A DNA stretch of 64,000 nucleotides from a virus: positions 62,001 through 126,000 of IMG/VR virus record IMGVR_UViG_3300042373_001362; one strand, written 5' to 3'. A program made the position numbers and the translations under genes. A model generated the notes under the pieces. That model was not told the origin of the DNA, ran no database searches, and saw only the letters and a program-made list of their open reading frames with translations. Positions 2 to 37,270 of the stretch are shown here, in pieces (the stretch's first letter is position 1; the number at the start of each line of letters is the position of its first letter).

Positions 2-3000
2 CTCGAATCACCACGAGTGAAGATTTGGTCAGACTTTAGAAAGCCAAAGAAACTTCCAAACGGTGAATGGGAATACCCGAACGAGCAGGAGATGAGGCTT
101 TCCTATGTTGCTGTAACAAGAGCAGAGGAAGAACTTGACCTAGGTTCACTTAGTTGGATTCTTGACCACACAACAGAAGAGGACGGTATGCCGAATACTT
201 TCTCTTCTGGAAGAAGCAAGGCAAGAGGCAACAGAGGTGATGGCAAGGGAAGACAAAAACCATGGTCGGCAGAAGATAGGCAAAGATTTGCGGACAGGGA
301 CATTCTTCGTTCACAAACACGCCCAGGAAAGCGTCGTCCAGGTCCTTCAGCAAACGAATTCTCGTCTGGTGCTGAATTTGATTTCACTCCAGAAGAGCTC
401 AATAGGTGGCAAAAAGCTAGCGAACATGCCAGCGCGTATGGCGATTGGGAAAATCTTCCAGAAAACAGAAAAAACGGATATCTTCGTAAATTCAACGGAG
501 ATGAAAATCTTGCTCGCGAGCAATTTAACGTGGAAAGAGATTTGGCAGACTTTGCTGCAGATGCACAATTTGACAAAACAGATTCACGATTCTCTTCTGG
601 AGGCCGCTTCGCAACACCACTGGATGCACCAGAGGGCTGGGAAATGCCAGAAATTGGTGATGACGGCGAAATAAAGAATGGACCGCTTAAGGGTTACTAT
701 GTTCGTGGCTTCGGGGACGATTACGTACGAGGAAGAAAATACGTAAGCTATCGTGGTGCAGACTACAGTAGTACTGATGAGCACAAAAATAACTTAGTTG
801 ATTGGGGTGATTACGAAGCGGGATACACCCTCGACAGAAACATAGGCTCTGACGAGGACATTAGGAGCATTTCTGACTCTTCCGAGCAAGAAGAAATGGC
901 GCAGTATGGCGACGAAGGTTTGTACTATGGCAATAGTTCACGCGGGCGATACGACCCTCAAAATGATTATGAAACTCCAGTAACCGACGACTCCCATTCA
1001 CCAGAAAACGGTGCAGACCACATCGGTAAAGCCGTATCCGTAACGGATGAAAATGGAAACAAATTCTACGGTGTAGTTGTTAGAGGTTGGGAACCGGAAT
1101 ACGAAGAAGACTTAGATGTTGATGAGGATGGGTGGGCAACCCCGAGCATGAACATACAAGACGGTGGCATGGTAGTTCTCGCTACTCATGATGCTGACGG
1201 CAAAAAACTTGATAAACCAGTAGTTGTTGAGGCAAGTTTTGGTCTTGAAAATGAATACGCCCTCGTATCAAATGTTGAGAGAGGTGGAGACGACTACGAA
1301 GGGCCAAAGGTCAATGTATCAAAAGGCCGTGTAAGTGAAGAAACCCTTGACGAAGCCAAAAAGCTTTATGAAGAACTGGACCCATATAGAAATGGTAAAG
1401 CCGAGGAGTTCAGGCGTCAAGGAGCCTTGATAGATAGAGCATGGAGAATGCCGGGAGGCGAAAAAGAGCGCAGGGAAAAAGCTGCCGAAGAAGCTTACAG
1501 AAGAAGCCCTGAAGGAATACAAGAGCAAAGAGAAAAGCTAGAAGCATCCATATCGGCTATAGAAGACAAGATAAGAAGCGCGGAGTCTTCTCGTGAATCT
1601 CTCATGGAGAGGCTGAACGATGTTTCTGAAAGTGGAGACAATGTCCTTGCTTCAAAAATGGAAGAAATATTAAGAGACAGAGAGGGAGCGGTACGACTCC
1701 TCCAAGAAAGACTTGAAGAAGCAAAAGCTGAACTAGATGCTTTTAATGGCGAAGGAAACAGGCTTTCTTCTGGAAGATTTGCGCCTGATGGACAATCGGG
1801 TTCAAGGCTTCAAAGAAGACTTTCTTCTGGCGATGTTTTTGGCCCACCACCAGGACAGTCGGCAAGGTATGACCGCAAGAAGCAAGTCGAGGCAACGATG
1901 GGTGCATTCCATTCTGACCCAGGCAAGGCTGTTGTGTCGAGCGACACCGAAGGCTTATTGGGTAAAATCCCTTCCGGTAAGAACTCCCATATCCTTAACG
2001 CCGAAGCAGCTAAGAGAATAATTGCAGACCCAGATACAGAGTATTCAGCAGATACCGGATGGCCGGTAGATGCAGGAAGACTTCTTGATTTCATCGAAAT
2101 TGAGAATCCTCTTGGTGGACGTCCAAGCACTCTTCGTGATAAAGACGACGCACAGCTTATTGCAAGGGTTTTGGGTATACCAGTATCGGATGCTCAGGAC
2201 ATGCTTGACGGAAAGCCTGTATACATTGCCAGCTCAACTGCGGCTGACATGTTTGACAACCTTTCAAGAAGCAGAGAGTACACAGCAAGCGTTGGTGGAT
2301 TAAACGACGTAGCGAGAGTTTGGGGATTTGATGGCGCTCCAAAGTGGGTGCGTCATAGCGATATTGCTACTCCAGAATTTGACCTCGACGAAAACGACAG
2401 AGTTAACTGGTCGCAGGTTAAGTGGGATGGACTTTCGAGGGCTGACTTTGATGCAGCAGTAAGAAGAGGGAATAACCCACCAGAACCCGTATACACATCA
2501 CCTGTTGAGTTTTTCAATAGTGATGCAATCGCCAGTAACCCCAAGTGGGACGCTCGTGGTGGCTCATTCAGAAACCCAACTGTGGATGCTGAGTTCACTG
2601 CAACACCAAAGAAGGTTGCTAGAGCTGAACAGCTGGAGCCAGAAAGATTTGTTTCTCAGGCAAGAGCCGGAGAAAGGGTTGCACGCGCTGACAAAGATTT
2701 CATGGATGAATGGACCAACGGAAGTCATGGAATTGGTGCAGCGCAGCTTATGCAAATGCTTGGATTGGAAAGAGATTCAGAAGGCGACCGCATAAGCAGC
2801 CAAGACGTAAGAAAGCTTCTTGATGAAATAAACAAGATTAAAGAAGAAGCTGGAAGCGGACTTGTTCCTGCTGCAAAGAGGGAAGACGGAAAATTTAAAG
2901 AATCACTTGAGCTGGACACAAAGAAGTCTCCAATCAATGATGAAATAATGCACGCCCTCATTGTTTCTGGAAGATTCAAGAACATGAAAGAAGCGGTTGC

Positions 3001-5374
3001 TTCTCTTGGTGACCCAAGACTTGATTCTCTTGCTGCAGAATATGACTCCCGCATGCTTGTAGATGCAGCATTTATAAGAATCAAAGACCATTTAAACAAG
3101 GTTGGAGCAGCAGACCAAAAGAAGATTCTTTCTAAGGTAATCACTGCCACCCTTGGTCGCAAGACAACACTTGAATCTCGCGTACAGGAAGGCAGAGCAT
3201 CAATCAAGGGTGTAATGAATTCAGACGCAATGATTGGCGATGAAAAGCTTTCCGAAGTAATTGGCATGGTCAACGAGGTTCTTGATGCAAGGGGTCTTGA
3301 GACAATCGACAAGGATGCATTGTTCCCAAGGGACGAGGCAGGCGGATTTGTGAACAACTTGAGTGCTTCGGCTCCAGGCGCAACGAGGCTTGCTTCTGGT
3401 CAGAGGTTTGTAGCCAGAACCGCATCAAGCAGAAGAGCTGATGCCGGAATGGATGCTGCAGCAAGAAGAGCAACAGATAGGCCAACGTTCTCAAGCGGTG
3501 CAAAGCCAGCATTTAGGGACCCAGACGGAAAACTGAACGCCACAAACATGAGAGATGCTGCATCCGAAGCAACAATTCCAGAAGGAACAATGATAAGAAA
3601 AACTCCTGGCCAAAATATAGAAGACTTTGAAAAAGCAGTTAAGACGAGGGCCGAAATAGCAGAAACCCTAAACATAGATACTTCAGCAATAAATGGCTTT
3701 ACTGTCTACGACGTTATAGACGAGCTTAAAAAGGCAGGAATACCTGAAGATACCGCAGAAGACCTTGTCGATAAGCTTGTAGAACTAGATTTCTATATTG
3801 ATGCAATCGAGGAGAGATTCTCTGAAGCCAGAGAAATCATGGATGAAGCTATTGAAGAAGCTGAAGATGCTATGGACAAGATTGCGAAGCTAAGAAAAGA
3901 GCGTGCCGACATTATTAATAGGTACGGCGAAGAAGATGGACAGCCACTGCTTGAGGTTGTTGATGAAAAAATTAGCAGAGCGACAAAAAAGCTTGACGAT
4001 GCCTACCAAAGAGGTATCGGCAATGAGGATGCAAGAATGGGAACTCTCTATTCTCAGGTTGACGAAATTCTGAGCAATAATCGTGGATGGAGAGAGTATT
4101 CGCCATCCCCATGGGGAGATAGTACAAATCAGAACCTTGCTGCTCTTGAATTAGCAATTGCAAAAGCTGGCGGAGTAAAGAAAGCCGTACCAGTTACGGG
4201 AATAGATTTCGGAGTTCCAGAAGGCACAAGGCTTTCTTCAGGAAAAGCAGAAGAGTATTACCAAAACCTCACAAGCCACTTGATAAACATGATTGAAAAA
4301 TCACAAAAAGAAGGCGGTAAGTGGGAAGCACCATGGCATAAGGCTGGAAACCTTCCAAGAAATGCTTCTACAAAGAATATGTATTCGGGTGGAAACATCT
4401 TTGCTCTTATGCTTGCAGCCGAAGAAAAGGGCTTCACAACCTCTCACTGGGGTGGATTCCAGCAGTGGAAGAAGCTTGGAGGAAGCGTAAAGAAGGGTGA
4501 AAAGGCAACCATCATCCTCATGCCAAAGCAGATGTTTGGTGAGGAAATCGACCCAGACACAGGGCAGAAGGTTAGAAAGTCAAAGGGCGTATATTTTACG
4601 ACCGCACATGTTTTCAACCTTGACCAAGTTGAGGGAATTGACCGCGATGAGTTCTTGAAGCTGCCGACAGATGCTCTGACACCAGAGCAGAGAGTCACAA
4701 AGCTTGAAGACGCAATCAAGGAAGTTGGTGCAACAATCAAGACCGGAGATGGAAGTAGGGCCTACTACTCTCCGCGTGAAGACCATGTTGTGATGCCTCC
4801 ATTCGAACTGTTCAAGTCCCCAGAGGGATACTACGGAACACTCGCCCATGAGCTTGTTCACTGGACAGGGCATTCGTCAAGACTTGACAGAAAGAACATG
4901 AACCAGTTTGGTTCTCCTGACTATGCAAGAGAAGAGCTTATTGCTGAATTTGGCTCAGCTTTCCTGTTGGCAATGTTTGGTCTTTCTGCAGAACCAAGAG
5001 AAGACCATGCCCATTACTTGGCAAACTGGTTGCAGGTTCTTCGCGATGAGCCAAATGCTCTACAGGAAGCAGCAACGAAAGCTCAAGAAGCATCAAAAAT
5101 GCTTATCGACAAGATGAAGGCAGTTCTGGAAGAGATGGGCGAAACCGCATCTACTGCTGAGTCGACGGTAGAAGAAAAGAATGCAAATATTTTTACAGAC
5201 CCGCTTTACGGAATAAAGAATGGACTTGTTGAGTGGAGCAAAAACATTGAGAACGCTCCATATTTCATCAAATCCTTGACAGACCCTGATGAGAAATACG
5301 GAAATGTAAATAGAAGATGGGAAAGAATTGCGGAAGCAGCGCTATTCCTGAACGGAATAAACAACAAAATCTAG
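2..5374 (+). CDS. Giant polyvalent protein A (5'-truncated): UvrD-type helicase end, ArdC-like domain, metallopeptidase
   Basis: The frame is open to the left edge; the first in-frame start is a GTG at 17, but the gene very likely begins outside the window. Numbering residues from that GTG, residues 27-50 match motif VI of UvrD-type helicases (RLSYVAVTRAEEEL). Residues 1410-1560 resemble the N-terminal domain of ArdC antirestriction proteins, followed by a zinc metallopeptidase with HELVH at 1611-1615 and a downstream EELIAEFGSAF ligand helix. In between are unrecognised, mostly helical segments, with coiled coil around 440-580. Eight tags of the form (F/L)(S/A)SG divide the chain, at residues 62, 115, 192, 583, 602, 1125, 1158 and 1406. 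ArdC proteins protect incoming DNA from restriction. The place ahead of the capsid gene fits a protein carried in the virion and injected with DNA (inference). Confidence 0.75.
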   Translation, partial: LESPRVKIWSDFRKPKKLPNGEWEYPNEQEMRLSYVAVTRAEEELDLGSLSWILDHTTEEDGMPNTFSSGRSKARGNRGDGKGRQKPWSAEDRQRFADRDILRSQTRPGKRRPGPSANEFSSGAEFDFTPEELNRWQKASEHASAYGDWENLPENRKNGYLRKFNGDENLAREQFNVERDLADFAADAQFDKTDSRFSSGGRFATPLDAPEGWEMPEIGDDGEIKNGPLKGYYVRGFGDDYVRGRKYVSYRGADYSSTDEHKNNLVDWGDYEAGYTLDRNIGSDEDIRSISDSSEQEEMAQYGDEGLYYGNSSRGRYDPQNDYETPVTDDSHSPENGADHIGKAVSVTDENGNKFYGVVVRGWEPEYEEDLDVDEDGWATPSMNIQDGGMVVLATHDADGKKLDKPVVVEASFGLENEYALVSNVERGGDDYEGPKVNVSKGRVSEETLDEAKKLYEELDPYRNGKAEEFRRQGALIDRAWRMPGGEKERREKAAEEAYRRSPEGIQEQREKLEASISAIEDKIRSAESSRESLMERLNDVSESGDNVLASKMEEILRDREGAVRLLQERLEEAKAELDAFNGEGNRLSSGRFAPDGQSGSRLQRRLSSGDVFGPPPGQSARYDRKKQVEATMGAFHSDPGKAVVSSDTEGLLGKIPSGKNSHILNAEAAKRIIADPDTEYSADTGWPVDAGRLLDFIEIENPLGGRPSTLRDKDDAQLIARVLGIPVSDAQDMLDGKPVYIASSTAADMFDNLSRSREYTASVGGLNDVARVWGFDGAPKWVRHSDIATPEFDLDENDRVNWSQVKWDGLSRADFDAAVRRGNNPPEPVYTSPVEFFNSDAIASNPKWDARGGSFRNPTVDAEFTATPKKVARAEQLEPERFVSQARAGERVARADKDFMDEWTNGSHGIGAAQLMQMLGLERDSEGDRISSQDVRKLLDEINKIKEEAGSGLVPAAKREDGKFKESLELDTKKSPINDEIMHALIVSGRFKNMKEAVASLGDPRLDSLAAEYDSRMLVDAAFIRIKDHLNKVGAADQKKILSKVITATLGRKTTLESRVQEGRASIKGVMNSDAMIGDEKLSEVIGMVNEVLDARGLETIDKDALFPRDEAGGFVNNLSASAPGATRLASGQRFVARTASSRRADAGMDAAARRATDRPTFSSGAKPAFRDPDGKLNATNMRDAASEATIPEGTMIRKTPGQNIEDFEKAVKTRAEIAETLNIDTSAINGFTVYDVIDELKKAGIPEDTAEDLVDKLVELDFYIDAIEERFSEAREIMDEAIEEAEDAMDKIAKLRKERADIINRYGEEDGQPLLEVVDEKISRATKKLDDAYQRGIGNEDARMGTLYSQVDEILSNNRGWREYSPSPWGDSTNQNLAALELAIAKAGGVKKAVPVTGIDFGVPEGTRLSSGKAEEYYQNLTSHLINMIEKSQKEGGKWEAPWHKAGNLPRNASTKNMYSGGNIFALMLAAEEKGFTTSHWGGFQQWKKLGGSVKKGEKATIILMPKQMFGEEIDPDTGQKVRKSKGVYFTTAHVFNLDQVEGIDRDEFLKLPTDALTPEQRVTKLEDAIKEVGATIKTGDGSRAYYSPREDHVVMPPFELFKSPEGYYGTLAHELVHWTGHSSRLDRKNMNQFGSPDYAREELIAEFGSAFLLAMFGLSAEPREDHAHYLANWLQVLRDEPNALQEAATKAQEASKMLIDKMKAVLEEMGETASTAESTVEEKNANIFTDPLYGIKNGLVEWSKNIENAPYFIKSLTDPDEKYGNVNRRWERIAEAALFLNGINNKI

Positions 5375-5465: not shown

Positions 5466-7016
5466 ATGAACGATGAAATGAACATGAGCCTCAGCGTCAC
5501 AGGAGATGGCGAAGTTCTGAAGTGCGCAAAAATGGGCGCTGACGTCTCTGGCTGCGGGTACACGCCTGGTTCAAAGCTTTGTGCCAAATGTGGTGCGATG
5601 CCAACTCAGGTAAAAATCGTTCCCGTTGACGAACCAGAAGACGAGATGGAAGACGAGATGGAAGACGACGACCGTGCAATGCCTGCTCCAAGAATGGGCA
5701 ACAAGCCTGCGCCAGTCGCCATGGAAGACGCTGGCATGGAGCCAGAAGAGCTTGAAGTCGAAGACGAAGAAGACGAAGAGTCCATGGATGAAGAAAAAAC
5801 AGCTTATTACAAGAAGTATGGCTATGACCGCTACGTCAAGAAGTATGGCAAGAAGCCATGGATGATGGACGGAGAAGGTCCTGACGAAGAAGAGGATATG
5901 AGTGACGAAGAAAAGGCTCTCCTCTGGGCTCTCAACAAGAAGCGCAAGGCTCGTGGTCTGACGGCAACCCAAAACGGCATGGACGTAAAGGGTATGGGCG
6001 AAGAGTATTACGAAGAAGAAGACGAAGAAGACGAAGAAGAAATGTCTGAGGACATGCCAGAAGACGACGAAGTCGAAAAAATGGCAATGCTCGAAAGAAT
6101 GCGCAAGAAGCGCATTAAGTCACTGGGCATCACACCAGAGGCTGTAGGTCCTCGCGGCTATCTTTGCGCCATCGAAAGAAAGGCATACCCAGGTGGAGCG
6201 TCTGTTTGTGACGACTGCCCAGGCGGATGTGTTTCAGAAAAGGGACTTCCTGGCTTGCTTCATGTCGAAGGTCTTGCTGAGCAGATGTTTAAGGGAACAG
6301 TTCTTGACTCCGGATACTCAGCAAAAGCAGACATGTACGTCATTGATATCCAAACAAAAACTGGCGCAGTAAACGAAGTCTTCGTTGACGGAACAACTGC
6401 AGAGGTCATGGGTTTCCACAGGCTTGACAACTCCGTATTTGAGCAGAAGTCGGCACAAGACAGCATGCAGATGATTCAGTTCTATGAAGCAGCAGACATT
6501 GCTGTTAAGTCAATTGACGGCCACGTAATTGGTGTTGAGCCAGATTCTTTTGAAGGAATCGATGCATACGCAGTAGAAATTGATGGCTTCGACGGTAAGT
6601 CATATGACGTCTTTGTTTCTCTTGATGGCGAAGTTCTGGGCTACGATAAGTACGAGATGGACGAAGCAGAAGAGATTGAAGCAGAAGCTGCAGAAATTGC
6701 TCTGAAGCGTGCGTTCACTGAAGACCAGCGCACATCGATGGCTAAGGAAGGAACAGCAATGCCAGATGGTTCGTTCCCAATCAAGAACGAATCAGACTTG
6801 CGTAATGCAATCCAGGCCTACGGTCGTGCAAAGGACAAAGAAGCCGCAAAGCGCCACATCATGAAGCGTGCGAAAGAAATGGGCAAAGAGAACCTGATTC
6901 CTTCAAACTGGGTAATGGGTGGCGGAACCGAAAAGAAGAGTGACGTTGTTGACGCAAGTTTGATGGCTTCTCTTATCGAATTCGAGCTTCTTCAAGCCGA
7001 AACAGAAATCAACTAG
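5466..7016 (+). CDS. Scaffold-like acidic head protein with PepSY-like repeats and DUF6582-like C-terminus
   Basis: 516 residues. The N-terminus has a cysteine cluster (KLCAKCGAMP) that could bind zinc. Residues about 50-210 are extremely acidic and methionine-rich. The middle holds two PepSY-like repeats: one from about 275, and one from about 335 running from EAADIAVKSIDG to GEVLGYDKYE. Residues about 432-480 match a C-terminal domain common in actinophage head proteins (MPDGSFPIKN, LRNAIQAYGRAKDKEAAKRH), which I recall as DUF6582. The position between presumed portal and capsid genes and the acidic charge suggest a scaffold or a capsid-maturation partner. No protease active site is evident. 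It has its own promoter and ribosome binding site. Confidence 0.6.
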   Translation: MNDEMNMSLSVTGDGEVLKCAKMGADVSGCGYTPGSKLCAKCGAMPTQVKIVPVDEPEDEMEDEMEDDDRAMPAPRMGNKPAPVAMEDAGMEPEELEVEDEEDEESMDEEKTAYYKKYGYDRYVKKYGKKPWMMDGEGPDEEEDMSDEEKALLWALNKKRKARGLTATQNGMDVKGMGEEYYEEEDEEDEEEMSEDMPEDDEVEKMAMLERMRKKRIKSLGITPEAVGPRGYLCAIERKAYPGGASVCDDCPGGCVSEKGLPGLLHVEGLAEQMFKGTVLDSGYSAKADMYVIDIQTKTGAVNEVFVDGTTAEVMGFHRLDNSVFEQKSAQDSMQMIQFYEAADIAVKSIDGHVIGVEPDSFEGIDAYAVEIDGFDGKSYDVFVSLDGEVLGYDKYEMDEAEEIEAEAAEIALKRAFTEDQRTSMAKEGTAMPDGSFPIKNESDLRNAIQAYGRAKDKEAAKRHIMKRAKEMGKENLIPSNWVMGGGTEKKSDVVDASLMASLIEFELLQAETEIN

Positions 7017-7033: not shown

Positions 7034-10000
7034 ATGACGGGTACGTTTAAAACGAAAACAAGATTTTATACCTCTTCGCAATTTGTGACCCCTATTTCAG
7101 GGCGCAAGCATTTCGTTGACTCCGCTATTGATTTCAGGCGAGGCCTTATTGAGAACTCATCAATGGCCGTTCTTAATGCCGATATCGCTGTTAAGGCTGC
7201 AATGGGAGCAGGGCTCTCTTCGTCTTCTGCTTCTGTCGGTCAAAAAGCACAGGGCGGCACATCTCCCGATTCTGACGGCAAAAAGCGCGTCAACAAAGGT
7301 GGCGTTCCTGGAATGGAAGAAGACGCCAACGGCTATAGGTACATGCCTGAAGCAACATGGGGTCCAGATAAGGTCCTAAATCTTTTTCCATCTCAAGAGA
7401 ATAGACAGTCAACAGACAGAACTCCAAACTTTGGATTCATCGACAAGGGTCCAGTCATCACTCCAGAACAATACGTTCAAAAAATGGAGAACGAACCACG
7501 AATCAGGATGTCCAAATACAAAATCAACTCTAGAACTGGTGAGCCTATAGAGGACACTGAAGTTGAATTTGACCGAATGAGATTCGGAAAAACTTTTGAT
7601 ATCAATCCAGATGTATCTGATGAAATATCTGAATCAGTTTCAGAAGAAATACAGGAAAAAAGTTTAGGAAGAAGTCTTAAAGAAAGAATGCCCGGCGGAA
7701 GCCTTATCGGAAGAGCTGCTGCTCGATTTGGCGTAATTATGGATGAACTTGGGAAGATGAGATGTCCTCCAGGAACTCCAGCCGCAAACCAATTTACCGA
7801 CATGACGGGTTCAAACTGTTTTGGCACATCGCCAGGAACGTTGATATCCGAAGCAATAAACCTTGCTCAAAACCTTGTTCCAGAAGACGATTCAAGACGT
7901 TCCTCTCGCCTCACAAGAGGCATTGTGAATCTTATGTTCGACTTAGAAAACGGTTTGTTTGGCAACAACGTCTGGTATCACGCAGACGGAACAAGAATGA
8001 AGCACGGCGAGTGGCGCAAGTTTCGCGAAGCTGGTGGTGTAGCAAAAAATGAACGCTGGATGGTCAATGGTGTTGAGAGAGTACTTGCCGAATTGGACTC
8101 TCAAGATGCACGAATGGAAGACCTTTATAGCAAGCTTGGCATAGACGTAAGCGATGTCAGAAAAGCAACAAACGAAGATGTATTTGAAGCTTTTCAAAAA
8201 CTCAAAGATTCAGGTGTAATTAGAGCTCAGCTTAGGGGTAGGCCATCGGCGGCTCAAGTTGAGGCGATGATGACTGCTCGCTTGCAAAACATGGACGCCC
8301 ACTGGATAGCAAGAAGCGCTGAAGAAAGAAAAATACTACTTGATATCGAGGTTAAGCGGTATAGGGAGCTAGAGAGAGCCCACATGGAGGCTTTTCTAGA
8401 TGAGGTTATTAAAAACCCAGAGCACATGAAAACTATCGGTGACGTCACTTTTAACCCAGCCGGAAGAGACCGCGCATCGTTTGGGATATCTAGGATAGGC
8501 CCAGATGGCAAGCCAGTTGGCTCTATAAATATAGACATACCGATGTCGCTCAAGTTTCAGGACTCAATGTTGCCAAATCTTTCTCCAGATGAGAGGCTAC
8601 GCATTTGGGCCGAAGGTGGACAGTCTGAAGTTTTGAGAGCAATGGCTGTTAAAGATTTCCTTGTTAATTCTAACTCTCATGCTGGACAGATGATAGCGAT
8701 GGTTGATGGTGGTCGTGGCCTTGGTCGACACGACATGAAACACGAAATAGCCCACTCAATCCAAGCCGTTGCGATATTCAACCATATGAAGAGAGAGCTA
8801 GACGCACGTGGCTCGCTCGTTATAGACAATGGAGAAAACAAAGCGCCCACCGTAATAACGGACGTAAGTCAACTTAACTCTGACATGCTTATGGCGTTGA
8901 TGGCTAGAGAAAACTTTATGGGCATTGACCTCAACTCACTAAAAGACCTCAGGTCTAGAGGTGACGTTGTTGCTTTTCTCGCTGGAAAATATATTGACGA
9001 AGTGCAGGCTCAATACGGAGGCATGAGAAGAGCGGCAGAAATAGGTGCAGAATTATGGTCACTCCGCAGTTCTGGTTTAATTTATGGCGATGACGTTGAT
9101 GCGGCTCTTGAATATATGGATGATGTTGCTTCTGGGGCGATTACAATTGATAGGACAGTTTCGGACGAAATTTTAAACAGAAGAGTTTATGAAGAATACC
9201 TCGATGGCTCCCGAAGGATACGCGAAGCCAGGGAGGAATCCGAGAGGCTCGCTGAAGAGGCTGAAGACGGGGAGTTTTTTGACGCGGAAGGAAGGGCGTC
9301 TGCCGAAAGGCTTTCTGCTGCCAGAGAAGCATACGCAGCAGAAAAACGCGCAGAAGTAAAAGAAGTAAAAGAAGCAGCAAAAACAATGTCTGAAGAAGAC
9401 ATGATTGACTTCCTCGCCGATGCGACAGAATCTTCTGATGTTCTGACAGAAATGCTTGATTCAGTAGAAGAAGCAGGTGAGGAACCTGACTGGATGTCTG
9501 TCATGGACAGAGACACTCTAGATGCAATGTCAAAAGCGGTTGTTGATGAATGGGTAAAAAGGTTTACCGTAAGAAGAAGCCCTGAGGCTATGGAAAAGCT
9601 TCAGAAAATGATTGACGACAAGCGTGAATCAAAAGGAACACTTTCTCCAGAAAAGGTTGAAGAGCGAAGATTTAGACAGTTCATGGAAGGTGCTGCTGAG
9701 CGGGCACAAGAAATGGGCCTAGAAGACCTTGTTCAGGCATACTCTGACTGGGAAGAGCTCGCTACTGGAGAAGGCGTTGATGGCGTCGACAGGGCACGCA
9801 GAAAAGAAATGCGTGATATGTACAGGGACGAGTACATAAAGAGAAGAACAGAAGGTCCTGACTCTGTTTCCAAAGAAGACGCACGCAAAGAATTCAACTC
9901 AAAGTTTAAGACACTTCGCAAGCCAAAGACAACGGCTGCTCGCGAAAGAGAAAAAAGAGCAAATCCGAAGAAGTTTAAAACTCATAACGGTAAAGATGGA

Positions 10001-13000
10001 GCACGAACTTTTGCTACCGCAGAAAGAGAAAGACTTCTCGAAGGTGCAACAACAGAAGAAAAAATTGCTCTTGTCGAAATGGGAAGCGGTGAAACTGACG
10101 TAATCAACATGATGAATGGCAGTTCCGAAGGAATGGCATCTGCTAGAGCTATCCAGAGAAGAAACACCAGACTTAAGAAAAATGGAGTTCTTCCTGATGA
10201 ATTAAATCATCATGAGGCGTCAATAGAAGAACAGGTAGAAAACTTCTACATACCACTTCTTGAATTGATGGACAAGTCCTCCCTGTCTCAAACTGTAGAA
10301 ATGCACATCGACAGCAATGATGATGCTATGAAGTACGTGGAAGACCTTCTTAATGGCGGAAGTCCAGAATTCACTGTCGGTATTGGAACCGGAACACTGG
10401 TTACAAGCAATACAGACTTTTCAGACGGCAAAAAGATAGTTATCCGCGTCCCAGAGGGAAGTAGGGCTGTTTTCCCGGACTGGTCTTTTTATTCTGACTC
10501 CGACAACGGTGAGCAGAAAATGATGATTCCACCGTCAAAGTTTCACCTTGTTGAAATTCGGGATGACGGAACAGTCGTTCTTGAGGTTGGAGAACAAAAA
10601 GGAACCGAAGAAGTTCTCAAAGATGCGATAGAGGAGATATCCCCTAGCGCTGGTGACAGTGACTTTGCATACAGAGAAGGCCTCAAGAAGAAGGTTGGCA
10701 GGGTAGTCGACAAGAGAATTGCGGAGCGTCGCAGACAGGGTATGTTTGACCCAGAAAAGCGTTCTCCAGTTGAAGAAGAAAGATTCTCTGCTAGTGCAGA
10801 CAACGCTGCTGCTGCTGCCGGTTTTGAACCAGACCTTCCACCAAGGCCAACCACTCCACCGCCAACAGGCGATTCACCCAACAAGCAGAGAGGAGTGAAA
10901 AGAAGACAGGCTTCAGCTGCGATTGACCGCGTAGTAAATCCAAACAATAGAACTGAAGACTCATGGCAGAAGGAAAGAAGAGCTAGACAAGAGCTGGATG
11001 CAATACACGCATACATAACCGGTGAAGGCGCATATCAAAATAGAACCAATCGAGTCGGTCGTAAAATAGCTCAAATGATGGAAGAAGCCTTCGGCACATC
11101 AAACATAAACGAACTAACCGAAGACCAAAAGTACGACTTAATTGATTTAATTTCTCAAAGATTAGATGCCAAGCTAAGAATAGACAACAACGGCTCTTAT
11201 GACGACAGAAGAAGCTTATCGCAATTCAAAAGCAGAATTCAAGACCACATTGACATTTCAAAAATGCTTGATTCAAATGACTTTAGCGACCCATATGGCA
11301 GCGATGGCTATGACATCGATTGGTCATCAATAGACACAACGCCTGATAGGCCTGAAAGATTCTCTTCCGGAGCCAAATGGGGGCAGATGCCTTCTAGCAA
11401 CGAACAAATAGATGGTCTTCTTGATGCATCAAACAATGATGGATTTAATGAGATTTATGGTTCACCACAAACTCGTGAAGAGCGAATTGCTCAGATGGTT
11501 GAAATGCAATCCGAAGTTCTCACTTCATTGAGAGAAATGATTGACAATGTTCCCGGCTCTGGAGACGAATTAGGACTTGAAGCCTCAAGCATTGACCCAG
11601 TAATCATGGACCTCATCAAGAACTCATCCGACGAAGAGATATATCAGATTATTTCAAAGGCCGCTATGGACTTGCATCAAAGTTTTGACTCACGACCACG
11701 TGTACGAATGAGACAAGATGAGCTTGATAACTTCCTGAAGACTGGAAGATACGGAAGAGAGTCTTCTTTTGATACCGATGCCAATAGATTTTCTTCAGGC
11801 AGGATAAGCAAAGGCATCAGGGCTAGAGCCAAAGATAAAGCAATAGAAATGATTGCTGAAAGAATTGGCAAAGATGAGGACTCACGTGAAATAGCAGAGA
11901 TGGTCCTAGACACTGTTTCTGCTCTTAAGTACGGCCCAGAAGCCGCCCTGACGCGCTTGGCGATAGACCTCGGAAGACGAGGAAGCCGAGATATTGCTGA
12001 AAGAACATTAGAAGAACTTGTTAGTAGAGGGAAACTCACAGACGAGCAAGCGAAATCTATATTGTCAAAAATGGACAGGTTTGCCCCAGACGGTCTTCCA
12101 GAACCAATCAAGAGAGGCGTCGGTTCGGCTGTTCGTGCCGCAGCAGACGCAATCGATACTCCAGAGAACAGAGAAAGACTGGACAGGGCTCGTGAAGCAG
12201 CAGGAGAAGCTGCAGGCAGAGCCAGGGAAGCTGTCGGTGAAGGTGCAAGAAACGTAGCCGAACGAGGTCGTGAGAGACTTAGAAGACTTAGGGAAAGAGA
12301 CGACAGAGGCGAAATTCCATCTTCTCCAGAAGATGTTCCATTTGGCGACTTTGACCCAGCGGATACAATTTTTTCAAGCGGCAGAAGACTCGACAGAAGA
12401 GTTGCTAGCTCGGAAGCTGGCCGTGAAAGAATCATGGATGGGGCAAAGAAGACCAGAACAAGATTCAGCAGCGGAGAGACGCCAGAACTTAAAGAGCCAA
12501 AGAAGCCAAGCAGGCCACGAGAGCCAGATAATGGCCCCATGACTGGAAAGTTCATCGACATCTTCAAGGGTGTTAAGTCATATAAAGAGATGCTCGATAG
12601 ATACAACGAGCAAGAAGTTATCTTCTTTGACTACGAGACAACTGGCTTTGACCCCAAAGTTGAAAGACCCGTTCAAATTGGTGCAGTAAAGATGAAGGGC
12701 GGAAAAGTTGTTGAAAGGTTCAATATCTTCGTAAACCCAGAAAAAGAACTTAGCGATTGGTCAAAAGCAAACCTCGTAGATGCTGACGGTAATCCACTAA
12801 CAAACGATTGGCTAAATAATCAGCCATCAATAGCAGAAGCACACCAACAACTTATTGATTTCTTTGGGCCTGATGCACTTCTTGGTGGACAGTTCACCCC
12901 GTTTGACCTTGGGTTCCTTGAAGAGTCACTCAAGAATGCCGGAATAGAATGGACTCCTGCTGGCGTTATTGACAGCAAGGCGCTTGCAGACGAGCTACTT

Positions 13001-16000
13001 CCAAAGTGGACACCAGAAACCGGCGATGGACCATTTGCTTTGAACGACGACGGCAGTAAATATGCTACTAACAGCCTTGGGCCCCTATCTGAGTACCTTG
13101 GCGTGGACCTCAAGGCATGGCATACGGCAGATGCTGACTCTGAGGCATCTGCAATGATTGTCCAGAAGATTCTTGAGCGTGCGGCCGAAAGAGACGACAC
13201 TCCAAAGCATCTGCTAAAAGTTGAAAACATGCCTGCAATCGTCAACGAGCGTAGAGCAAAGCACAAGTTGGCAATGGATAAGTACTTTGCTGACATGAAG
13301 CAGTACAAGGCAGACATGGAAGCCTATAACGCTTCTAAATCTGACTCAGGAGGCGGAACAAGATTCTCTTCCGGCGGGAAAGCCGACCCCATGGTCATCA
13401 AGACAAATGGTCGATACGGCGACACCAGCGGAAAGAGCGATTTTAGCTCAGATGAGCTAAAGACAATAGACGAAATAACCGAGCGTCTATCCAACTCTGA
13501 TTTGAATCTGGCGTGGTTTTCGTTAGAGAACGAAGACGGAACAGCCACATCTTCGCCATTGATTAACTTTAACGGCAGGCCAATAGCTGTTGTTCGTATT
13601 GGAGAACAGAACATACCGTTTTATAGAAGTACCGGAAGTGGCGGCAAAGACCCAAGCAGGTTTGTTCCAAACAAATGGTATCCATTCTGGGGGTATAACG
13701 CGTCTGGTCAGTGGTTTATAAAAAACGAAGAAATGGAAAACTATTACGGGATACCAGAGCTGGAAGAAATATCTAAACAACTGGACACCCTTACGGATGG
13801 TCTTCCAAAGTTAAAGGCATCAACAGAGTGGCGTAGCGTCGCAAACATAGAGACCGGCCAAATGGATGATGATTTTAGAGGTTTAATAAATGGAACTGCA
13901 TTTAGAAATGCTGACTCGCTTTATAACAGACGTGACATAACAAATCACATTACTGTATCTAAGAAAAAGACGAGAGACGAAATAAAGTTAATGAAGAGAG
14001 ATGCCTTAAAGGCCTCAAGAGATGGCAATACTCCTCCAGGGGTTGATAGGTTCTCTTCTGGAGAAACATATAGAGAACTGGTTAGAACTGAAGGAAGGCC
14101 ATCAGAAAAGCAAAAAGAAGCAATTTCTGATGTTAAGGACATTCTAAGAAATAACGAGTTTGGCATTGCTGACGAGTTTGACGATGAATACGAAGTAGTA
14201 GACAGTCCAAGAAGGGCTGAACTGAAGGCGAAAGTTGCTGAAAAGATTTCAGAAGCTTTCTCTCACGACATAGAAGCAAGAGAAGATGTCGTTGTTACCG
14301 CTAAGAATGGCGAAAAAATAAACCTAGGAAAAGATTTCAAGATTGAAATAAGCGAAATATCTGTAGATGTTGACACTTATGACGAAGAAACTTTAGAAGC
14401 AATCAAAGAGCAACAGTTTTACGATACTCCTACTGGCTCAATGAGCGACTCCCCAAGCACTTTAATATCGATGAAGATATCAATAAAGCCAAAAGACGAG
14501 GAAGCAGCAAAGCGCCTTGAGCAGGCAGGTATCCCGGAGCTTCTATTGCCAGACTATTTTGACGGAACCCCAGGGGCCGACGATGTAAGGGTTGGATTCT
14601 CATCAAGAAACTTAGTAATAAATGGCAACGAAATGCATGCAACGCATGAGTCACTATTCCTCAGGGATGAAGCTCAAGGGAAAGGCATAGGAAGTCTATT
14701 CAACGCTAAGAATGAAGGAGTCTATGAAGAGCTTGGCGTTAGAAGAATCCTCACCAACGGTCAATCCTCTGAACTTGGAGAATCTGAAGGTGGAACACAT
14801 TGGCCAAGAAATGGTTTTACGTGGGCCGGAGAACAGAGCAAACAGGACTTTATTAAGGTTATAGACCGAGCCCTGAAGAGAAGAAAGAGCAAATTCTCTG
14901 AAGAAGAATACGCAAGAATAAGTTCTTTATATAGAAAGAACCCCTCAACTAGGAAGTTCGAAACAGACGCATCAGCAGAAGAGCTTGTCGATTTTGCTTA
15001 TGCAGATGAACTGTTTAAAGAACAGGATGCAAGCTTCATGTTTAAGCGCGACATTGAGCTCGTATCTGCCGGTAGTCCGAGATTCTCTTCAGGTGGAACA
15101 AGGTTCTCTTCTGGGGCGTCTGGAGCAGCAAGAGCTGGAATAAACAGAGATATATATGAAAGAGAAGGGGGCAGACCCTCGGACAAGCTGGAGCCATCAT
15201 CTTTGTTAAGAAAATCATCAGACGGAAAAGACTCTTCTGCTCTAGAAATAAATGGCAAAACATATGACATTAAGTCACTCAAAAACGAAGACGGAAACTT
15301 TTCTGTATTTATAGAAAATGAAGACGGTAAAAAAATTGCTGAGATTGTTTTAAACCAGGAGCCAACATCTTATGCATCTATAGTTTCAATATCATCGGAA
15401 GAAGATGCACAAAAAGCTGGAGCGCTAGAAGGAATTTTAGACTCTTTGTTAATAAATAATCCTGACGCAACGTTTAGGAAAACAGAAAAAACAGCAGAAT
15501 GGTTCAACTACGTAACCAATGGCATGGCTGACTATGGGCTTCAGGGAAGCAGACAGGTTGGTTTCTCCGGAAAGTTCAGCGATGGAGAAAGAGCTACACC
15601 CGATGGCGACTATACGTTAAGTTCGTTTTTAAGATTTAAGCCGAAAAGAAATTCATCTAAAACGCTAAAATCCGATAAAAATTCTTTTTCAGAGTATTCA
15701 TATAAGTGGAACGGGGAAATATTTGATATCGGAGGAGAGTCATTAGTATTTGGCGCACCTGAAGATGCGGAATTTGAAGATAGTTCTATAAAAAAGATAA
15801 ATCTGAATCCATTTGAAATACTGGGTCTTGAGCCAACTTCAGAAGAAGGCAGAGATGCTGCCATGAAATGGATGTCAGCAATACACGGCGCATCAATATC
15901 CATAATATCTGACGGTCAAGAATTTAAACCTAGCACCTATGTTAGTGCTCTTCTTTACGCCTCTTCAAAGGGGGATAAGAAAGCAGCAGAAGAATTAGAC

Positions 16001-17506
16001 GCATTGGCAAAACGTTCAAGTGATTGGCTTGCAAAGCTAAAAGAAAAAGAACAAAAGATTGAAGAAACTGGAAATGCTTTGCCGCTCAATTCTAGGCTTG
16101 TTCACCAAACGTCATACAAGCCAACAATAGATAAAGACGGATATCTAGTCCTTCGACCACTAGAGGACTTTCCACAAAAATCGAACGATGGCTCTGACGT
16201 AACTGTTAACAGAACAACGCTGCATTTAGCAATCAATCACCTTGCAGAAGGTCATATGTTTAGGCAGGAAACACAAGGTAAGTCTTACATTGTAATGATG
16301 CCTCTTGACTCTTTTATGGACCAAAACCCAGATAGCCTCGAAAATCTTTCAATAGTTGACACTGCAGCAACACCCCCACCAGGAGATGGCTTGCGCATGG
16401 CTCCAGGAACATTCAAAGTTATAGAGGTCGATGAGGGCGGGAATGGTCGAAGGATGGTTGAAGATGCTCTCAGAGAAGATGGCGTAGGCGTTCTAGTCGG
16501 TGGTGACAGGTCTTCCGGAACTCCAGGAGCAGATAAAGCAGCCGAAGCTAGGGCGCGGATGCTTGGAGTGTCTAATAACGTTGCGTCTGACCTGCCGTTA
16601 ACAGTGTTTGAAACTATTAACAGGACAAGCATATATGAGCAGTCTCGCTATGCCGATGTTCCTGCAACTACCGAAATTATGCAAACTGCTAGCAAAAATA
16701 CACTCATGAGAATGGCCAACAGAAGAGAAAACGCATGGACAGCATTTGATAAAGAAGTAGTAGCAACAGACTTTTTGTCTAGCGGTGAAGTAAAAGCCCC
16801 AGCAGAACCAAGAACACGGAAGCCAAAGCGAGTAAAGAAGTATAAGGGCTACGACCTTAACGAGCCAGACAATCCGGCTCCTAAGCCGGGAGAATTCCCT
16901 GATGATGTTGTTGAGGCTGCAACAAAACATAGGGCAGAGATTGAAAAGGTAGAAGCGGAAATAACAAAGCTTCTCATTGACTTGGCCGAAAAGAATAAAG
17001 CCCGTATGGAAGGTCTTGATTTTAGGCTTAAAGCTCTGAAGTCACTAATGCGCAAGATAGCTGCAGAAAAAGACAGCGAGCATGGTGGAGACGCAGAAAA
17101 AGCAGCGAAGTCCATGTCTGATGTTGTTAGGTACACGATGTCCTACGGCCCAGAAGATTACGTTGCTGGCGTAAAAGACGTTGTAGCAGAAATGCAGAAA
17201 CTTGGGTATGACCTTAGAATTAAGAACTACTGGAAGGGCGGCGACCCATACCAGGGAATCAACGTTGCCGTAACACACCCCGATGGAACAAAGTTTGAAC
17301 TGCAATTCCATACTCCACAATCTGTGGCTGAGAAAGAAAAAATTCACGTAATGTATGAGGAGTACAGAACATCAAAAGACCCAGGTCAGAGATGGGAGTT
17401 GTACCAGCGGATGGTTGAAATAGCTAACCAAATAGGTGTACCTATTCCACCAGAAGAACTGCTAACTATCGGCCAAGTGAAAGAACAGCCATTCCAGGCG
17501 GAGTAA
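7034..17506 (+). CDS. Giant polyvalent protein B: metallopeptidase, ART-like, DnaQ exonuclease, GNAT, RelA/SpoT-like domains
   Basis: 3490 residues. In order: a CPPG...QFTD...C motif (C244, C262); a zincin-like HEIAH at 570-574; long charged helices; an ADP-ribosyltransferase-like fold about 1075-1200 whose usual second catalytic Glu appears to be Lys (E1160-Q-K); helical segments; a DEDDh 3'-5' exonuclease (D1866, E1868, H2030, D2035); a domain with IPFYRSTGSG; a GNAT acetyltransferase (QGKGIG at 2548-2553); an unknown part containing LVHQT at 3022; and a C-terminal RelA/SpoT-like nucleotidyltransferase (VVRYT with R3366, ELQFHT from E3422). Nine (F/L)SSG tags at 1443, 1586, 1780, 1811, 2111, 2340, 2684, 2691 and 3248, plus a variant at 1251, separate these units. 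Likely packaged in the head and delivered to the host (inference). Individual domain calls vary in strength; exonuclease, GNAT and RelA/SpoT are the best. Confidence 0.75.
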   Translation: MTGTFKTKTRFYTSSQFVTPISGRKHFVDSAIDFRRGLIENSSMAVLNADIAVKAAMGAGLSSSSASVGQKAQGGTSPDSDGKKRVNKGGVPGMEEDANGYRYMPEATWGPDKVLNLFPSQENRQSTDRTPNFGFIDKGPVITPEQYVQKMENEPRIRMSKYKINSRTGEPIEDTEVEFDRMRFGKTFDINPDVSDEISESVSEEIQEKSLGRSLKERMPGGSLIGRAAARFGVIMDELGKMRCPPGTPAANQFTDMTGSNCFGTSPGTLISEAINLAQNLVPEDDSRRSSRLTRGIVNLMFDLENGLFGNNVWYHADGTRMKHGEWRKFREAGGVAKNERWMVNGVERVLAELDSQDARMEDLYSKLGIDVSDVRKATNEDVFEAFQKLKDSGVIRAQLRGRPSAAQVEAMMTARLQNMDAHWIARSAEERKILLDIEVKRYRELERAHMEAFLDEVIKNPEHMKTIGDVTFNPAGRDRASFGISRIGPDGKPVGSINIDIPMSLKFQDSMLPNLSPDERLRIWAEGGQSEVLRAMAVKDFLVNSNSHAGQMIAMVDGGRGLGRHDMKHEIAHSIQAVAIFNHMKRELDARGSLVIDNGENKAPTVITDVSQLNSDMLMALMARENFMGIDLNSLKDLRSRGDVVAFLAGKYIDEVQAQYGGMRRAAEIGAELWSLRSSGLIYGDDVDAALEYMDDVASGAITIDRTVSDEILNRRVYEEYLDGSRRIREAREESERLAEEAEDGEFFDAEGRASAERLSAAREAYAAEKRAEVKEVKEAAKTMSEEDMIDFLADATESSDVLTEMLDSVEEAGEEPDWMSVMDRDTLDAMSKAVVDEWVKRFTVRRSPEAMEKLQKMIDDKRESKGTLSPEKVEERRFRQFMEGAAERAQEMGLEDLVQAYSDWEELATGEGVDGVDRARRKEMRDMYRDEYIKRRTEGPDSVSKEDARKEFNSKFKTLRKPKTTAAREREKRANPKKFKTHNGKDGARTFATAERERLLEGATTEEKIALVEMGSGETDVINMMNGSSEGMASARAIQRRNTRLKKNGVLPDELNHHEASIEEQVENFYIPLLELMDKSSLSQTVEMHIDSNDDAMKYVEDLLNGGSPEFTVGIGTGTLVTSNTDFSDGKKIVIRVPEGSRAVFPDWSFYSDSDNGEQKMMIPPSKFHLVEIRDDGTVVLEVGEQKGTEEVLKDAIEEISPSAGDSDFAYREGLKKKVGRVVDKRIAERRRQGMFDPEKRSPVEEERFSASADNAAAAAGFEPDLPPRPTTPPPTGDSPNKQRGVKRRQASAAIDRVVNPNNRTEDSWQKERRARQELDAIHAYITGEGAYQNRTNRVGRKIAQMMEEAFGTSNINELTEDQKYDLIDLISQRLDAKLRIDNNGSYDDRRSLSQFKSRIQDHIDISKMLDSNDFSDPYGSDGYDIDWSSIDTTPDRPERFSSGAKWGQMPSSNEQIDGLLDASNNDGFNEIYGSPQTREERIAQMVEMQSEVLTSLREMIDNVPGSGDELGLEASSIDPVIMDLIKNSSDEEIYQIISKAAMDLHQSFDSRPRVRMRQDELDNFLKTGRYGRESSFDTDANRFSSGRISKGIRARAKDKAIEMIAERIGKDEDSREIAEMVLDTVSALKYGPEAALTRLAIDLGRRGSRDIAERTLEELVSRGKLTDEQAKSILSKMDRFAPDGLPEPIKRGVGSAVRAAADAIDTPENRERLDRAREAAGEAAGRAREAVGEGARNVAERGRERLRRLRERDDRGEIPSSPEDVPFGDFDPADTIFSSGRRLDRRVASSEAGRERIMDGAKKTRTRFSSGETPELKEPKKPSRPREPDNGPMTGKFIDIFKGVKSYKEMLDRYNEQEVIFFDYETTGFDPKVERPVQIGAVKMKGGKVVERFNIFVNPEKELSDWSKANLVDADGNPLTNDWLNNQPSIAEAHQQLIDFFGPDALLGGQFTPFDLGFLEESLKNAGIEWTPAGVIDSKALADELLPKWTPETGDGPFALNDDGSKYATNSLGPLSEYLGVDLKAWHTADADSEASAMIVQKILERAAERDDTPKHLLKVENMPAIVNERRAKHKLAMDKYFADMKQYKADMEAYNASKSDSGGGTRFSSGGKADPMVIKTNGRYGDTSGKSDFSSDELKTIDEITERLSNSDLNLAWFSLENEDGTATSSPLINFNGRPIAVVRIGEQNIPFYRSTGSGGKDPSRFVPNKWYPFWGYNASGQWFIKNEEMENYYGIPELEEISKQLDTLTDGLPKLKASTEWRSVANIETGQMDDDFRGLINGTAFRNADSLYNRRDITNHITVSKKKTRDEIKLMKRDALKASRDGNTPPGVDRFSSGETYRELVRTEGRPSEKQKEAISDVKDILRNNEFGIADEFDDEYEVVDSPRRAELKAKVAEKISEAFSHDIEAREDVVVTAKNGEKINLGKDFKIEISEISVDVDTYDEETLEAIKEQQFYDTPTGSMSDSPSTLISMKISIKPKDEEAAKRLEQAGIPELLLPDYFDGTPGADDVRVGFSSRNLVINGNEMHATHESLFLRDEAQGKGIGSLFNAKNEGVYEELGVRRILTNGQSSELGESEGGTHWPRNGFTWAGEQSKQDFIKVIDRALKRRKSKFSEEEYARISSLYRKNPSTRKFETDASAEELVDFAYADELFKEQDASFMFKRDIELVSAGSPRFSSGGTRFSSGASGAARAGINRDIYEREGGRPSDKLEPSSLLRKSSDGKDSSALEINGKTYDIKSLKNEDGNFSVFIENEDGKKIAEIVLNQEPTSYASIVSISSEEDAQKAGALEGILDSLLINNPDATFRKTEKTAEWFNYVTNGMADYGLQGSRQVGFSGKFSDGERATPDGDYTLSSFLRFKPKRNSSKTLKSDKNSFSEYSYKWNGEIFDIGGESLVFGAPEDAEFEDSSIKKINLNPFEILGLEPTSEEGRDAAMKWMSAIHGASISIISDGQEFKPSTYVSALLYASSKGDKKAAEELDALAKRSSDWLAKLKEKEQKIEETGNALPLNSRLVHQTSYKPTIDKDGYLVLRPLEDFPQKSNDGSDVTVNRTTLHLAINHLAEGHMFRQETQGKSYIVMMPLDSFMDQNPDSLENLSIVDTAATPPPGDGLRMAPGTFKVIEVDEGGNGRRMVEDALREDGVGVLVGGDRSSGTPGADKAAEARARMLGVSNNVASDLPLTVFETINRTSIYEQSRYADVPATTEIMQTASKNTLMRMANRRENAWTAFDKEVVATDFLSSGEVKAPAEPRTRKPKRVKKYKGYDLNEPDNPAPKPGEFPDDVVEAATKHRAEIEKVEAEITKLLIDLAEKNKARMEGLDFRLKALKSLMRKIAAEKDSEHGGDAEKAAKSMSDVVRYTMSYGPEDYVAGVKDVVAEMQKLGYDLRIKNYWKGGDPYQGINVAVTHPDGTKFELQFHTPQSVAEKEKIHVMYEEYRTSKDPGQRWELYQRMVEIANQIGVPIPPEELLTIGQVKEQPFQAE

Positions 17507-25354: not shown

Positions 25355-26017
25355 ATGAACGAAGAAGAAATATTCGAAAGTCTTTTAAAGATTGAAAAAA
25401 ACATCGTCGTAAAAGATGATTTTTTTGATGTCGAATTTCCTGAGTGGGGTGAAGACTATTCAGATGAAGCGCTATTCGGTGATGGAATCTCTTCCAAGTC
25501 TGCAAAGCTAAAAGACCCCAAGGGTGGACTTACTGCGGCAGGAAGAAAGCACTTCAAGAGAACGCAGGGAGCAAACCTCAAGCCTGGAGTAAAAGGTGCT
25601 GCCGACACTCCCGAGAAGATGAGACGTAAGGGTTCTTTCCTTACCCGCTTCTTTACCAACCCATCTGGCCCAATGGTCGACGAAAAAGGAAGAGCAACGA
25701 GACTGGCTTTATCAGCAGCAGCGTGGGGCGAAAGAGTTCCCAAGAATGCAGAAGATGCAGCAGCACTTGCAGCAAAAGGTCGCAGACTTCTTGAAAGATA
25801 CGAAAATACAAAGAAAAAGAAAAAAGACGCTTTCGATGACGTTAAAACAAAGTCAAAGAAAAAGCCAGCATTCTGGGAGCAGCCTTCACCATCAAAAGGG
25901 AAGACTTCTAAGCTGACAGATTCTCAAAAGAAAAAAGCTAAAGCTCGTGCCAAGGCAGCCGGTCGTCCATATCCAAACCTTGTAGACAATGCATGGGCAG
26001 TTAAGCAGAAGCCATGA
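25355..26017 (+). CDS. Conserved basic phage protein (DUF6321-like)
   Basis: 220 residues from ATG 25355, preceded by AAAGG; an upstream TTG at 25316 lies in the terminator region and is rejected. The centre carries GGLTAAGRKHFKRTQGANL, PGVKGAADTPEKMRRKGSF, FTNPSGP and LALSAAAWGE, a block common in phage and metagenome proteins that I recall as DUF6321. The C-terminus is lysine-rich (KKKAKARAKAAGRP), so it may bind DNA. It overlaps the nuclease start by four bases. Confidence 0.6.
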   Translation: MNEEEIFESLLKIEKNIVVKDDFFDVEFPEWGEDYSDEALFGDGISSKSAKLKDPKGGLTAAGRKHFKRTQGANLKPGVKGAADTPEKMRRKGSFLTRFFTNPSGPMVDEKGRATRLALSAAAWGERVPKNAEDAAALAAKGRRLLERYENTKKKKKDAFDDVKTKSKKKPAFWEQPSPSKGKTSKLTDSQKKKAKARAKAAGRPYPNLVDNAWAVKQKP

Positions 26018-36625: not shown

Positions 36626-36698
36626 GGGCTAGTAGCTCAGTGGTTAGAGCGCCATTCTTATAAAATGGTGGTCGCGGGTTCAATTCCCGTCTAGCCCA
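36626..36698 (+). tRNA. tRNA-Ile (anticodon TAT)
   Basis: Full cloverleaf: acceptor GGGCTAG/CTAGCCC, D stem GCTC/GAGC, anticodon stem CCATT/AATGG with loop CTTATAA, T arm with TTCAATT. CCA is not encoded. Anticodon TAT reads the ATA codon, rare in most Actinobacteria but common in this phage's left-half genes. Confidence 0.93.
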
Positions 36699-36716
36699 CT
36701 AGACAAAATAAAATGT

Positions 36717-37268: not shown

Positions 37269-37270
37269 AC

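What the first reader, a model, noticed from the sequence alone, without database searches (positions are those of the whole stretch)
7034..17506. A 3490-residue effector chain with exonuclease, GNAT, ART-like, peptidase and RelA/SpoT-like domains
Motifs for a DEDDh exonuclease (D1866, E1868, H2030, D2035), GNAT (QGKGIG), zincin (HEIAH) and RelA/SpoT (R3366, ELQFHT) are all visible in one chain just before the capsid gene. Polyvalent proteins are known to carry such mixtures and be injected with DNA. A RelA/SpoT unit could make alarmone or modify host tRNA or nucleotides on entry.
Basis: partly seen in the sequence, partly recalled or inferred. Interest (0 to 1): 0.8.

Follow-up and report, generated by a model that had tools for sequence, protein, structure and literature searches.

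The report
Tag-delimited modular phage effector chain
This giant phage protein is a string of interchangeable enzyme cassettes separated by a short peptide 'tag' whose spelling is fixed within each phage but differs between related phages, as if the arsenal were made as one precursor with marked cutting or handling points.

Summary
The 3490-residue ORF is real, and most of its named domains hold up. There is an intact DEDDh exonuclease, a zincin (HExxH...E), an alarmone synthetase and a probable GNAT. An ART fold is present but lacks the canonical catalytic glutamate in all ten orthologues, and the chain is not 'just before the capsid gene' (MCP lies 6.4 kb downstream). The RelA/SpoT-like end is closest to SaEAS and the Apk2 toxins (RYT/GxN/[FY]H motifs), so it is predicted to make (p)ppApp and/or (p)ppGpp. 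No phage immunity hydrolase was found.

The main result is the tags. This chain and the upstream prohead-protease-fused 3963-residue chain carry 24 copies of [R][FL]SSG. Related freshwater phages have the same architecture, each with its own word (RLSSG, GLSSG, SLSSG, KLSSG, ISGRM, GFAS, GLAS), also placed in the tape-measure protein. Tags coincide with borders of shuffled modules (52 against 0.7 expected); synonymous codons vary; one exonuclease module is flanked by the local word in each phage. This implies protein-level selection by a phage-specific reader, most likely a protease cutting a polyprotein. Cleavage, reader and packaging are inferred, not shown. New variant of polyvalent proteins.

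The parts
7034..17506 (+). Chain II: 3490-aa tagged polyvalent chain
   Evidence: ORF; orthologues in the same place in about 20 phages
7760..7825 (+). RCPPGTPAANQFTDMTGSNCFG motif of the chain-II core (aa 243-264), conserved also in phages with other tag words
8411..9133 (+). Zincin metallopeptidase-like domain (HEIAH aa 570-574 plus downstream Glu)
   Evidence: HExxH and downstream Glu conserved in 11 phages; no Pfam match
10121..10645 (+). ART-fold domain lacking the canonical catalytic Glu (pseudo-ART)
   Evidence: AlphaFold model and Foldseek; alignment
11357..11371 (+). tag RFSSG (aa 1442-1446)
11786..11800 (+). tag RFSSG
12371..12382 (+). tag FSSG (IFSSG)
12461..12475 (+). tag RFSSG at the 5' border of the exonuclease module
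12464..13363 (+). DEDDh exonuclease module (RNase_T aa 1863-2041)
   Evidence: Pfam PF00929 E=3e-16; catalytic residues intact in homologues
13361..13375 (+). tag RFSSG
13364..14050 (+). Module E (aa 2111-2339), unknown; homologues in other phages
14048..14062 (+). tag RFSSG
14051..15103 (+). GNAT-like module (QGKGIG), absent from the two closest relatives
15080..15094 (+). tag RFSSG (first of a double tag)
15101..15115 (+). tag RFSSG (second of a double tag)
15104..16774 (+). Module G (aa 2691-3247), unknown fold; homologous stretch aa 2868-3236
16772..16786 (+). tag FLSSG
16775..17503 (+). RSH/alarmone synthetase module (aa 3248-3490; domain 3281-3488)
   Evidence: PHROG 2859/7625; PDB 8vx3 E=2.4e-21; syn motifs
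2..5374 (+). In-window part of chain I (3963 aa; whole ORF L004:5483-17374): S78 prohead protease, UvrD helicase, ArdC-N, MPTase-PolyVal, 15 [FL]SSG tags
4253..5077 (+). ArdC-N + MPTase-PolyVal module at the C-terminus of chain I
   Evidence: Pfam E=1e-25 and 8e-44
5466..7016 (+). 516-aa conserved ORF between the chains; its C-terminal part is homologous to the C-terminal part of the capsid maturation protease gene of Gordonia phage ChisanaKitsune
23888..25255 (+). HK97-type major capsid protein (used to find relatives)

Best explanation
The ORF is a polyvalent virion protein built as a fixed N-terminal core (zincin plus pseudo-ART) followed by a row of interchangeable effector cassettes. Each cassette is bordered by a five-residue tag, R[FL]SSG in this phage. 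SHOWN by sequence: the tag word is uniform within a phage across two or three giant chains and the tape-measure protein; it differs between phages, is under protein-level selection, marks the borders of swapped modules, and is 're-spelled' when the same module sits in another phage. Candidates are the S78 prohead protease fused to chain I and the chain-II zincin, which changes type with the tag clade. INFERRED: the pieces are packaged and enter the cell with the DNA, where the C-terminal enzyme makes (p)ppApp/(p)ppGpp and drains nucleotides or restrains the host.
For: Tags: 9 [FL]SSG in this chain against 0.18 expected in shuffles (max 3 of 2000); 24 in the two chains. Phage-specific words, e.g. 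ISGRM 13 copies against 0.006 expected, GLSSG 17, SLSSG 16, GFAS 21, GLAS 26 in giant chains. Codons at tags vary freely, including TCN<->AGY serine. Module borders: of 214 homologies between non-colinear positions, 52 (5') and 47 (3') have both ends within 12 aa of a tag, against 0.7-0.8 expected and at most 6-8 in 500 circular shifts. Closest relatives G001/G003 share flanking segments at 71-83% but lack segments 2111-3247 and carry others, exactly tag to tag. The same exonuclease module is flanked by RFSSG, RLSSG, SLSSG, ISGRM, ISGAM or GFAS according to phage. The tape-measure protein carries the local word in its linker in most phages checked. Peptidases in the same chains: S78, zincin, MPTase-PolyVal. 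Intact catalytic residues argue that the released modules are active.
Against: No cleavage data exist. S78 is 70-90% conserved between phages with wholly different words, and the presumed MCP maturation region KDV[YF]S does not follow the tag word, which counts against S78 as sole reader. The tape-measure tag needs a reader not confined to the capsid. Zincin type follows tag clade but so does phylogeny, and G037 (GFAS word) has the [FL]SSG-group zincin. One tape-measure homologue (G017) lacks the tag. Some modules in other chains have borders without a detectable tag.
Confidence: 0.55

Rival explanations
1. The tags are not cut: they are short docking peptides that bind a phage scaffold, capsid or tail-lumen protein and hold each module during packaging, and the chain acts as one long protein.
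For: A phage-specific word repeated once per module fits a binding site as well as a cut site; T4 capsid-targeting sequences are a precedent for short targeting peptides (PMC7411985); the MCP maturation region does not share the word.
Against: The word also occurs in the tape-measure protein, which is not a head protein; T4-type targeting peptides are terminal and single, here they are internal and up to 18 per chain; peptidase domains sit in the same chains.
Confidence: 0.22
2. Tags are relics of module exchange: recombination joints or flexible linkers with no reader.
For: They lie at module borders in low-complexity linkers.
Against: Synonymous codons vary while the peptide is kept, so it is not a DNA joint; the word is uniform within a phage and changes in homologous modules between phages; it also occurs in the tape-measure protein.
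Confidence: 0.07
3. The tags are cut by a host protease after ejection, so the words reflect different hosts rather than a phage reader.
For: All tag-bearing proteins are of kinds that enter or span the cell during ejection; the words are phage- and perhaps host-specific; neither phage peptidase tracks the word cleanly.
Against: Hosts are unknown (no match in 84,980 species genomes); peptidases are already encoded in the chains.
Confidence: 0.13

Closest known systems
Polyvalent proteins of phages and conjugative elements (Iyer et al. 2017, PMC5512222)
   Same: Many unrelated enzymatic domains in one chain; same repertoire (zincin/MPTase-PolyVal, ArdC-N, GNAT, ART, RelA/SpoT, helicase); encoded next to portal/capsid genes; comparison with polyproteins already made there.
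   Different: Passages read there describe no uniform, phage-specific separator peptide, no tag-to-tag cassette exchange and no shared word in the tape-measure protein.
Apk2 / MuF (p)ppApp-synthetase toxins (PMC12226406) and exported alarmone synthetase SaEAS (PMC12691689, PDB 8vx3)
   Same: Homologous catalytic domain, 33% identical to a Streptococcus phage member over the aligned region; RYT syn2, GxN syn3, aromatic-H syn4; catalytic Asp and Glu kept.
   Different: No MuF domain, no adjacent Aph1-type HD hydrolase in the phage record; the module sits behind a tag in a 3490-aa chain. SaEAS makes both alarmones, so product specificity is open.
Phage P1 Dar proteins, T4 Alt/internal proteins, SPN3US ejection proteins (PMC12810830, PMC7411985)
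   Same: Internal head proteins ejected with DNA; several are cut by the prohead protease.
   Different: Cuts there remove terminal propeptides; no multi-site tagged precursor of several enzymes is described in the passages read.
Gordonia phage ChisanaKitsune / Brevibacterium phage Cantare structural region
   Same: MCP 47-48% identical; same late region; both have an RNA ligase gene between portal and capsid, and ChisanaKitsune also a VIP2-like ART toxin and an HNH gene.
   Different: Effectors are separate genes there, protease is a single 400-500-aa gene, and no repeated tag was found.

Membership tests
Polyvalent proteins | Several functionally unrelated effector domains in one chain | tested here: met
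   exonuclease, zincin, alarmone synthetase, ART fold, GNAT-like
Polyvalent proteins | Encoded with portal/terminase/capsid genes | tested here: met
   terminase, portal, S78 protease, MCP around it
Polyvalent proteins | Packaged in the virion and injected | not testable with these tools
   no proteomics; inferred from context
RSH alarmone synthetase domain | Syn motifs and catalytic residues | tested here: met
   RYT, GIN, ELQFHT; invariant in five homologues, aligned with a Streptococcus phage Apk2-type protein; 8vx3 E=2.4e-21
Apk2 (MuF polymorphic toxin) | N-terminal MuF domain | tested here: not met
   PHROG MuF families match only the C-terminal domain; no MuF Pfam match
Apk2 (MuF polymorphic toxin) | Linked (p)ppApp hydrolase immunity gene (aph1) | tested here: not met
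   No HD_4 (PF13328) match in the 148-kb record; controls ring in 10 of 14 genomes
Apk2 (MuF polymorphic toxin) | Linked iapK immunity gene; exclusive (p)ppApp product | not tested
   no IapK model used; product needs an enzyme assay
DEDDh 3'-5' exonuclease | DxE, D and HxxxxD catalytic residues, RNase_T profile | tested here: met
   E=3e-16; residues kept in homologues
Zincin metallopeptidase | HExxH plus downstream third ligand | tested here: met
   H570-E571-xx-H574 and a downstream Glu invariant in 18 aligned sequences
MPTase-PolyVal (Pfam PF18818) | Profile match of the chain-II zincin | tested here: not met
   No match in 18 homologues; the true MPTase-PolyVal is in chain I
GNAT acetyltransferase | Motif A and profile or fold match | tested here: inconclusive
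   [QR]GxG[IL][GA] in most homologues; Pfam best E=0.027 in 4 of 17; no model made
ADP-ribosyltransferase | ART fold | tested here: met
   Foldseek prob 1.00, E=6e-4 to C3-type ARTs
ADP-ribosyltransferase | Catalytic glutamate | tested here: not met
   absent in all ten orthologues aligned

The most novel reading that the evidence does not exclude
These phages make their injected arsenal, and handle their tape measure, as polyproteins with a lineage-specific cleavage 'password' read by a co-evolving phage protease, so that any effector gaining two copies of the password can be plugged in. This would be a phage counterpart of eukaryotic RNA-virus polyproteins.
Probability: 0.42. Interest if true: 0.92.

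Novelty: new variant of a known kind. Interest (0 to 1): 0.76.

Why it matters
Polyvalent proteins are known, but how one chain becomes several working effectors, and how modules are gained and lost, is open. The alarmone synthetase end would be an example of (p)ppApp/(p)ppGpp chemistry carried in a virion chain without a linked hydrolase.

Tried and rejected
(1) tblastn of aa 1-1745 and of the GNAT-like module against 50,697 named phages: nothing; of aa 1746-3490: only exonuclease and synthetase relatives. (2) Exact-peptide scan of viral contigs with the whole chain found no relative; MCP, GNAT and zincin queries worked. (3) Zincin core in GTDB genomes for a host clue: none. (4) A combined E-F-G alignment misaligned fragments and was discarded; modules were aligned singly. 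(5) Module G: AlphaFold (mean pLDDT 69) with no PDB fold and one unnamed phage match, so no function is claimed. (6) Idea that the [FL]SSG-type zincin is the universal reader: phages with other words lack it, but carry a different HExxH protein at the same place, so the idea is weakened, not excluded. (7) Idea that MCP maturation uses the same word: not supported. (8) Idea of DNA recombination sites: rejected by synonymous variation. (9) HD_4 immunity hydrolase: absent.

Full report
OBSERVATION. The window is G000:C1:62001-126000 of a 148,355-base IMG/VR virus record. The ORF 7034-17506 (+) is open for 3490 codons. Against an ~80% identical orthologue (G003) it shows strong purifying selection in core, exonuclease and synthetase segments (dN 0.11-0.15, dS 1.0 to saturation). 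It is therefore a real gene.

DOMAINS, IN ORDER. The core (aa ~190-1285) is conserved at the same place in the relatives and contains a Cys motif RCPPGTPAANQFTD..GSNCFG. It has a zincin helix (HEIAH 570-574, with a downstream ExxAEL-like Glu; both invariant in the 18 aligned sequences). Its last part (~1030-1204) is an ART fold by AlphaFold and Foldseek, in which the canonical catalytic glutamate is absent in all ten orthologues. I call it a pseudo-ART. The exonuclease (1811-2110) is a DEDDh RNase_T domain with all catalytic residues. Module E (2111-2339) is unknown. Module F (2340-2690) is GNAT-like by motif and weak profiles. Module G (2691-3247) is a phage-specific unknown. Module H (3248-3490) is an RSH-type alarmone synthetase. 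Its nearest solved structure by sequence is 8vx3, SaSAS/SaEAS (E=2.4e-21). It shares RYT, GxN and an aromatic-H syn4 motif with Apk2 toxins. Apk2 domains make only (p)ppApp (PMC12226406), while SaEAS makes both alarmones (PMC12691689), so the product is left open. The record has no HD_4 hydrolase, unlike Apk2 loci.

THE TAGS. R[FL]SSG occurs nine times in this chain in relaxed form ([FL]SSG; 0.18 expected, maximum 3 in 2000 shuffles). It occurs 15 times in the upstream 3963-aa chain, which begins with an S78 prohead protease domain and carries a UvrD helicase, ArdC-N and MPTase-PolyVal. It also occurs twice, in relaxed form, in the tape-measure homologue.

RELATIVES. The MCP scan gave 80 related contigs. 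In the relatives read in detail, the same two or three giant chains (up to 7369 aa open) recur, each with its own word: RLSSG, GLSSG, SL[SA]SG, KLSSG, FSSGR, [DE]GFAS, GLAS, ISGRM, [IV][ST]GxM. One fragmentary relative (G039) gave no word. Named relatives (Gordonia phage ChisanaKitsune, Brevibacterium phage Cantare) have separate effector genes and no repeated tag.

WHAT THE TAGS MARK. Across 39 tagged chains, homologies between non-colinear positions start and end at tags far more often than chance (52 and 47, against 0.7 and 0.8). In the three closest phages, whole tag-to-tag segments are present or absent while their neighbours stay 71-83% identical or better. The exonuclease module is preceded or followed by the local word in each phage. 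For instance KTRTRFSSGETPELKEPKKPSRPREPDNGP... here corresponds to TSFSISGRMGTPDPVKPQRPREPDNGP... in G031. The word therefore follows the phage, not the module.

LEVEL OF SELECTION. Tag codons vary synonymously, including TCN to AGY serine, so the peptide is what is kept. A uniform word across several proteins of one phage, changing between phages, implies one reader per phage (inference).

WHO READS IT. Three candidates remain. The S78 protease is found wherever the stretch read covers that region, and its domain begins chain I in most phages; but it is well conserved across different words, and the MCP maturation region does not follow the word. The chain-II zincin changes type with tag clade ([FL]SSG: HE[IF]xH..Q; ISGxM: HExGH), which fits the suggestion in PMC5512222 that embedded peptidases release effectors; this is confounded by phylogeny, and G037 is an exception. 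A host protease cannot be excluded.

MECHANISM. I judge proteolytic separation of modules the most likely use (0.55), docking or packaging second (0.22), host processing third (0.13). Precedents exist for prohead-protease trimming of ejected proteins (T4 IPs and Alt, SPN3US, P1 DarA), but in the passages read these are single terminal cuts.

NOVELTY. Polyvalent proteins, RelA/SpoT in them, and the polyprotein analogy are known. I found no description of a phage-specific separator word; this rests on seven searches of an open-access library that lacks most subscription journals. Hence 'new variant of a known kind'.

LIMITS. There are no experiments, no host and no proteomics. Boundary statistics use related chains, so homologies are not independent, though the excess is about 60-70-fold. 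Ends of some contigs and fetched stretches cut chains short.

Noticed in passing
L004:5483-17374 (window 2-5374 is its C-terminal part): The prohead protease is the N-terminus of a 3963-aa tagged chain, and the 516-aa ORF after it is homologous to the C-terminal part of the single capsid-protease gene of Gordonia phage ChisanaKitsune, as if the cassette array had been inserted into an ancestral protease gene.
   Followed up: partly
L002:14795-19912 (-): Tape-measure homologue with KLSSG near its N-terminus and RFSSG in its central linker; homologues in other phages carry their own tag word in the linker.
   Followed up: yes
L121-L122 (G010:27616-49725): One open frame of 7369 codons with 17 LSSG/LASG-type tags and six HExxH motifs in a related phage.
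   Followed up: partly
window 33813-34904: ORF with HEWSH and HSNMFEMFAEG-like context, possibly another small zincin outside the tagged chains.
   Followed up: no
window 26014-26424: Small thermonuclease-like ORF (by eye: SNase-type sequence) just after the capsid gene.
   Followed up: no
L166 (G007:53146-67368): A related chain I carries sigma-70 region 4, KTSC, UvrD helicase and exonuclease modules together, showing that transcription-factor-like cassettes are also in play.
   Followed up: no
window 36626-45472: Five tRNA genes (Ile-TAT, Met-CAT, Arg-TCT, Arg-CCT, Lys-TTT), on both strands.
   Followed up: no
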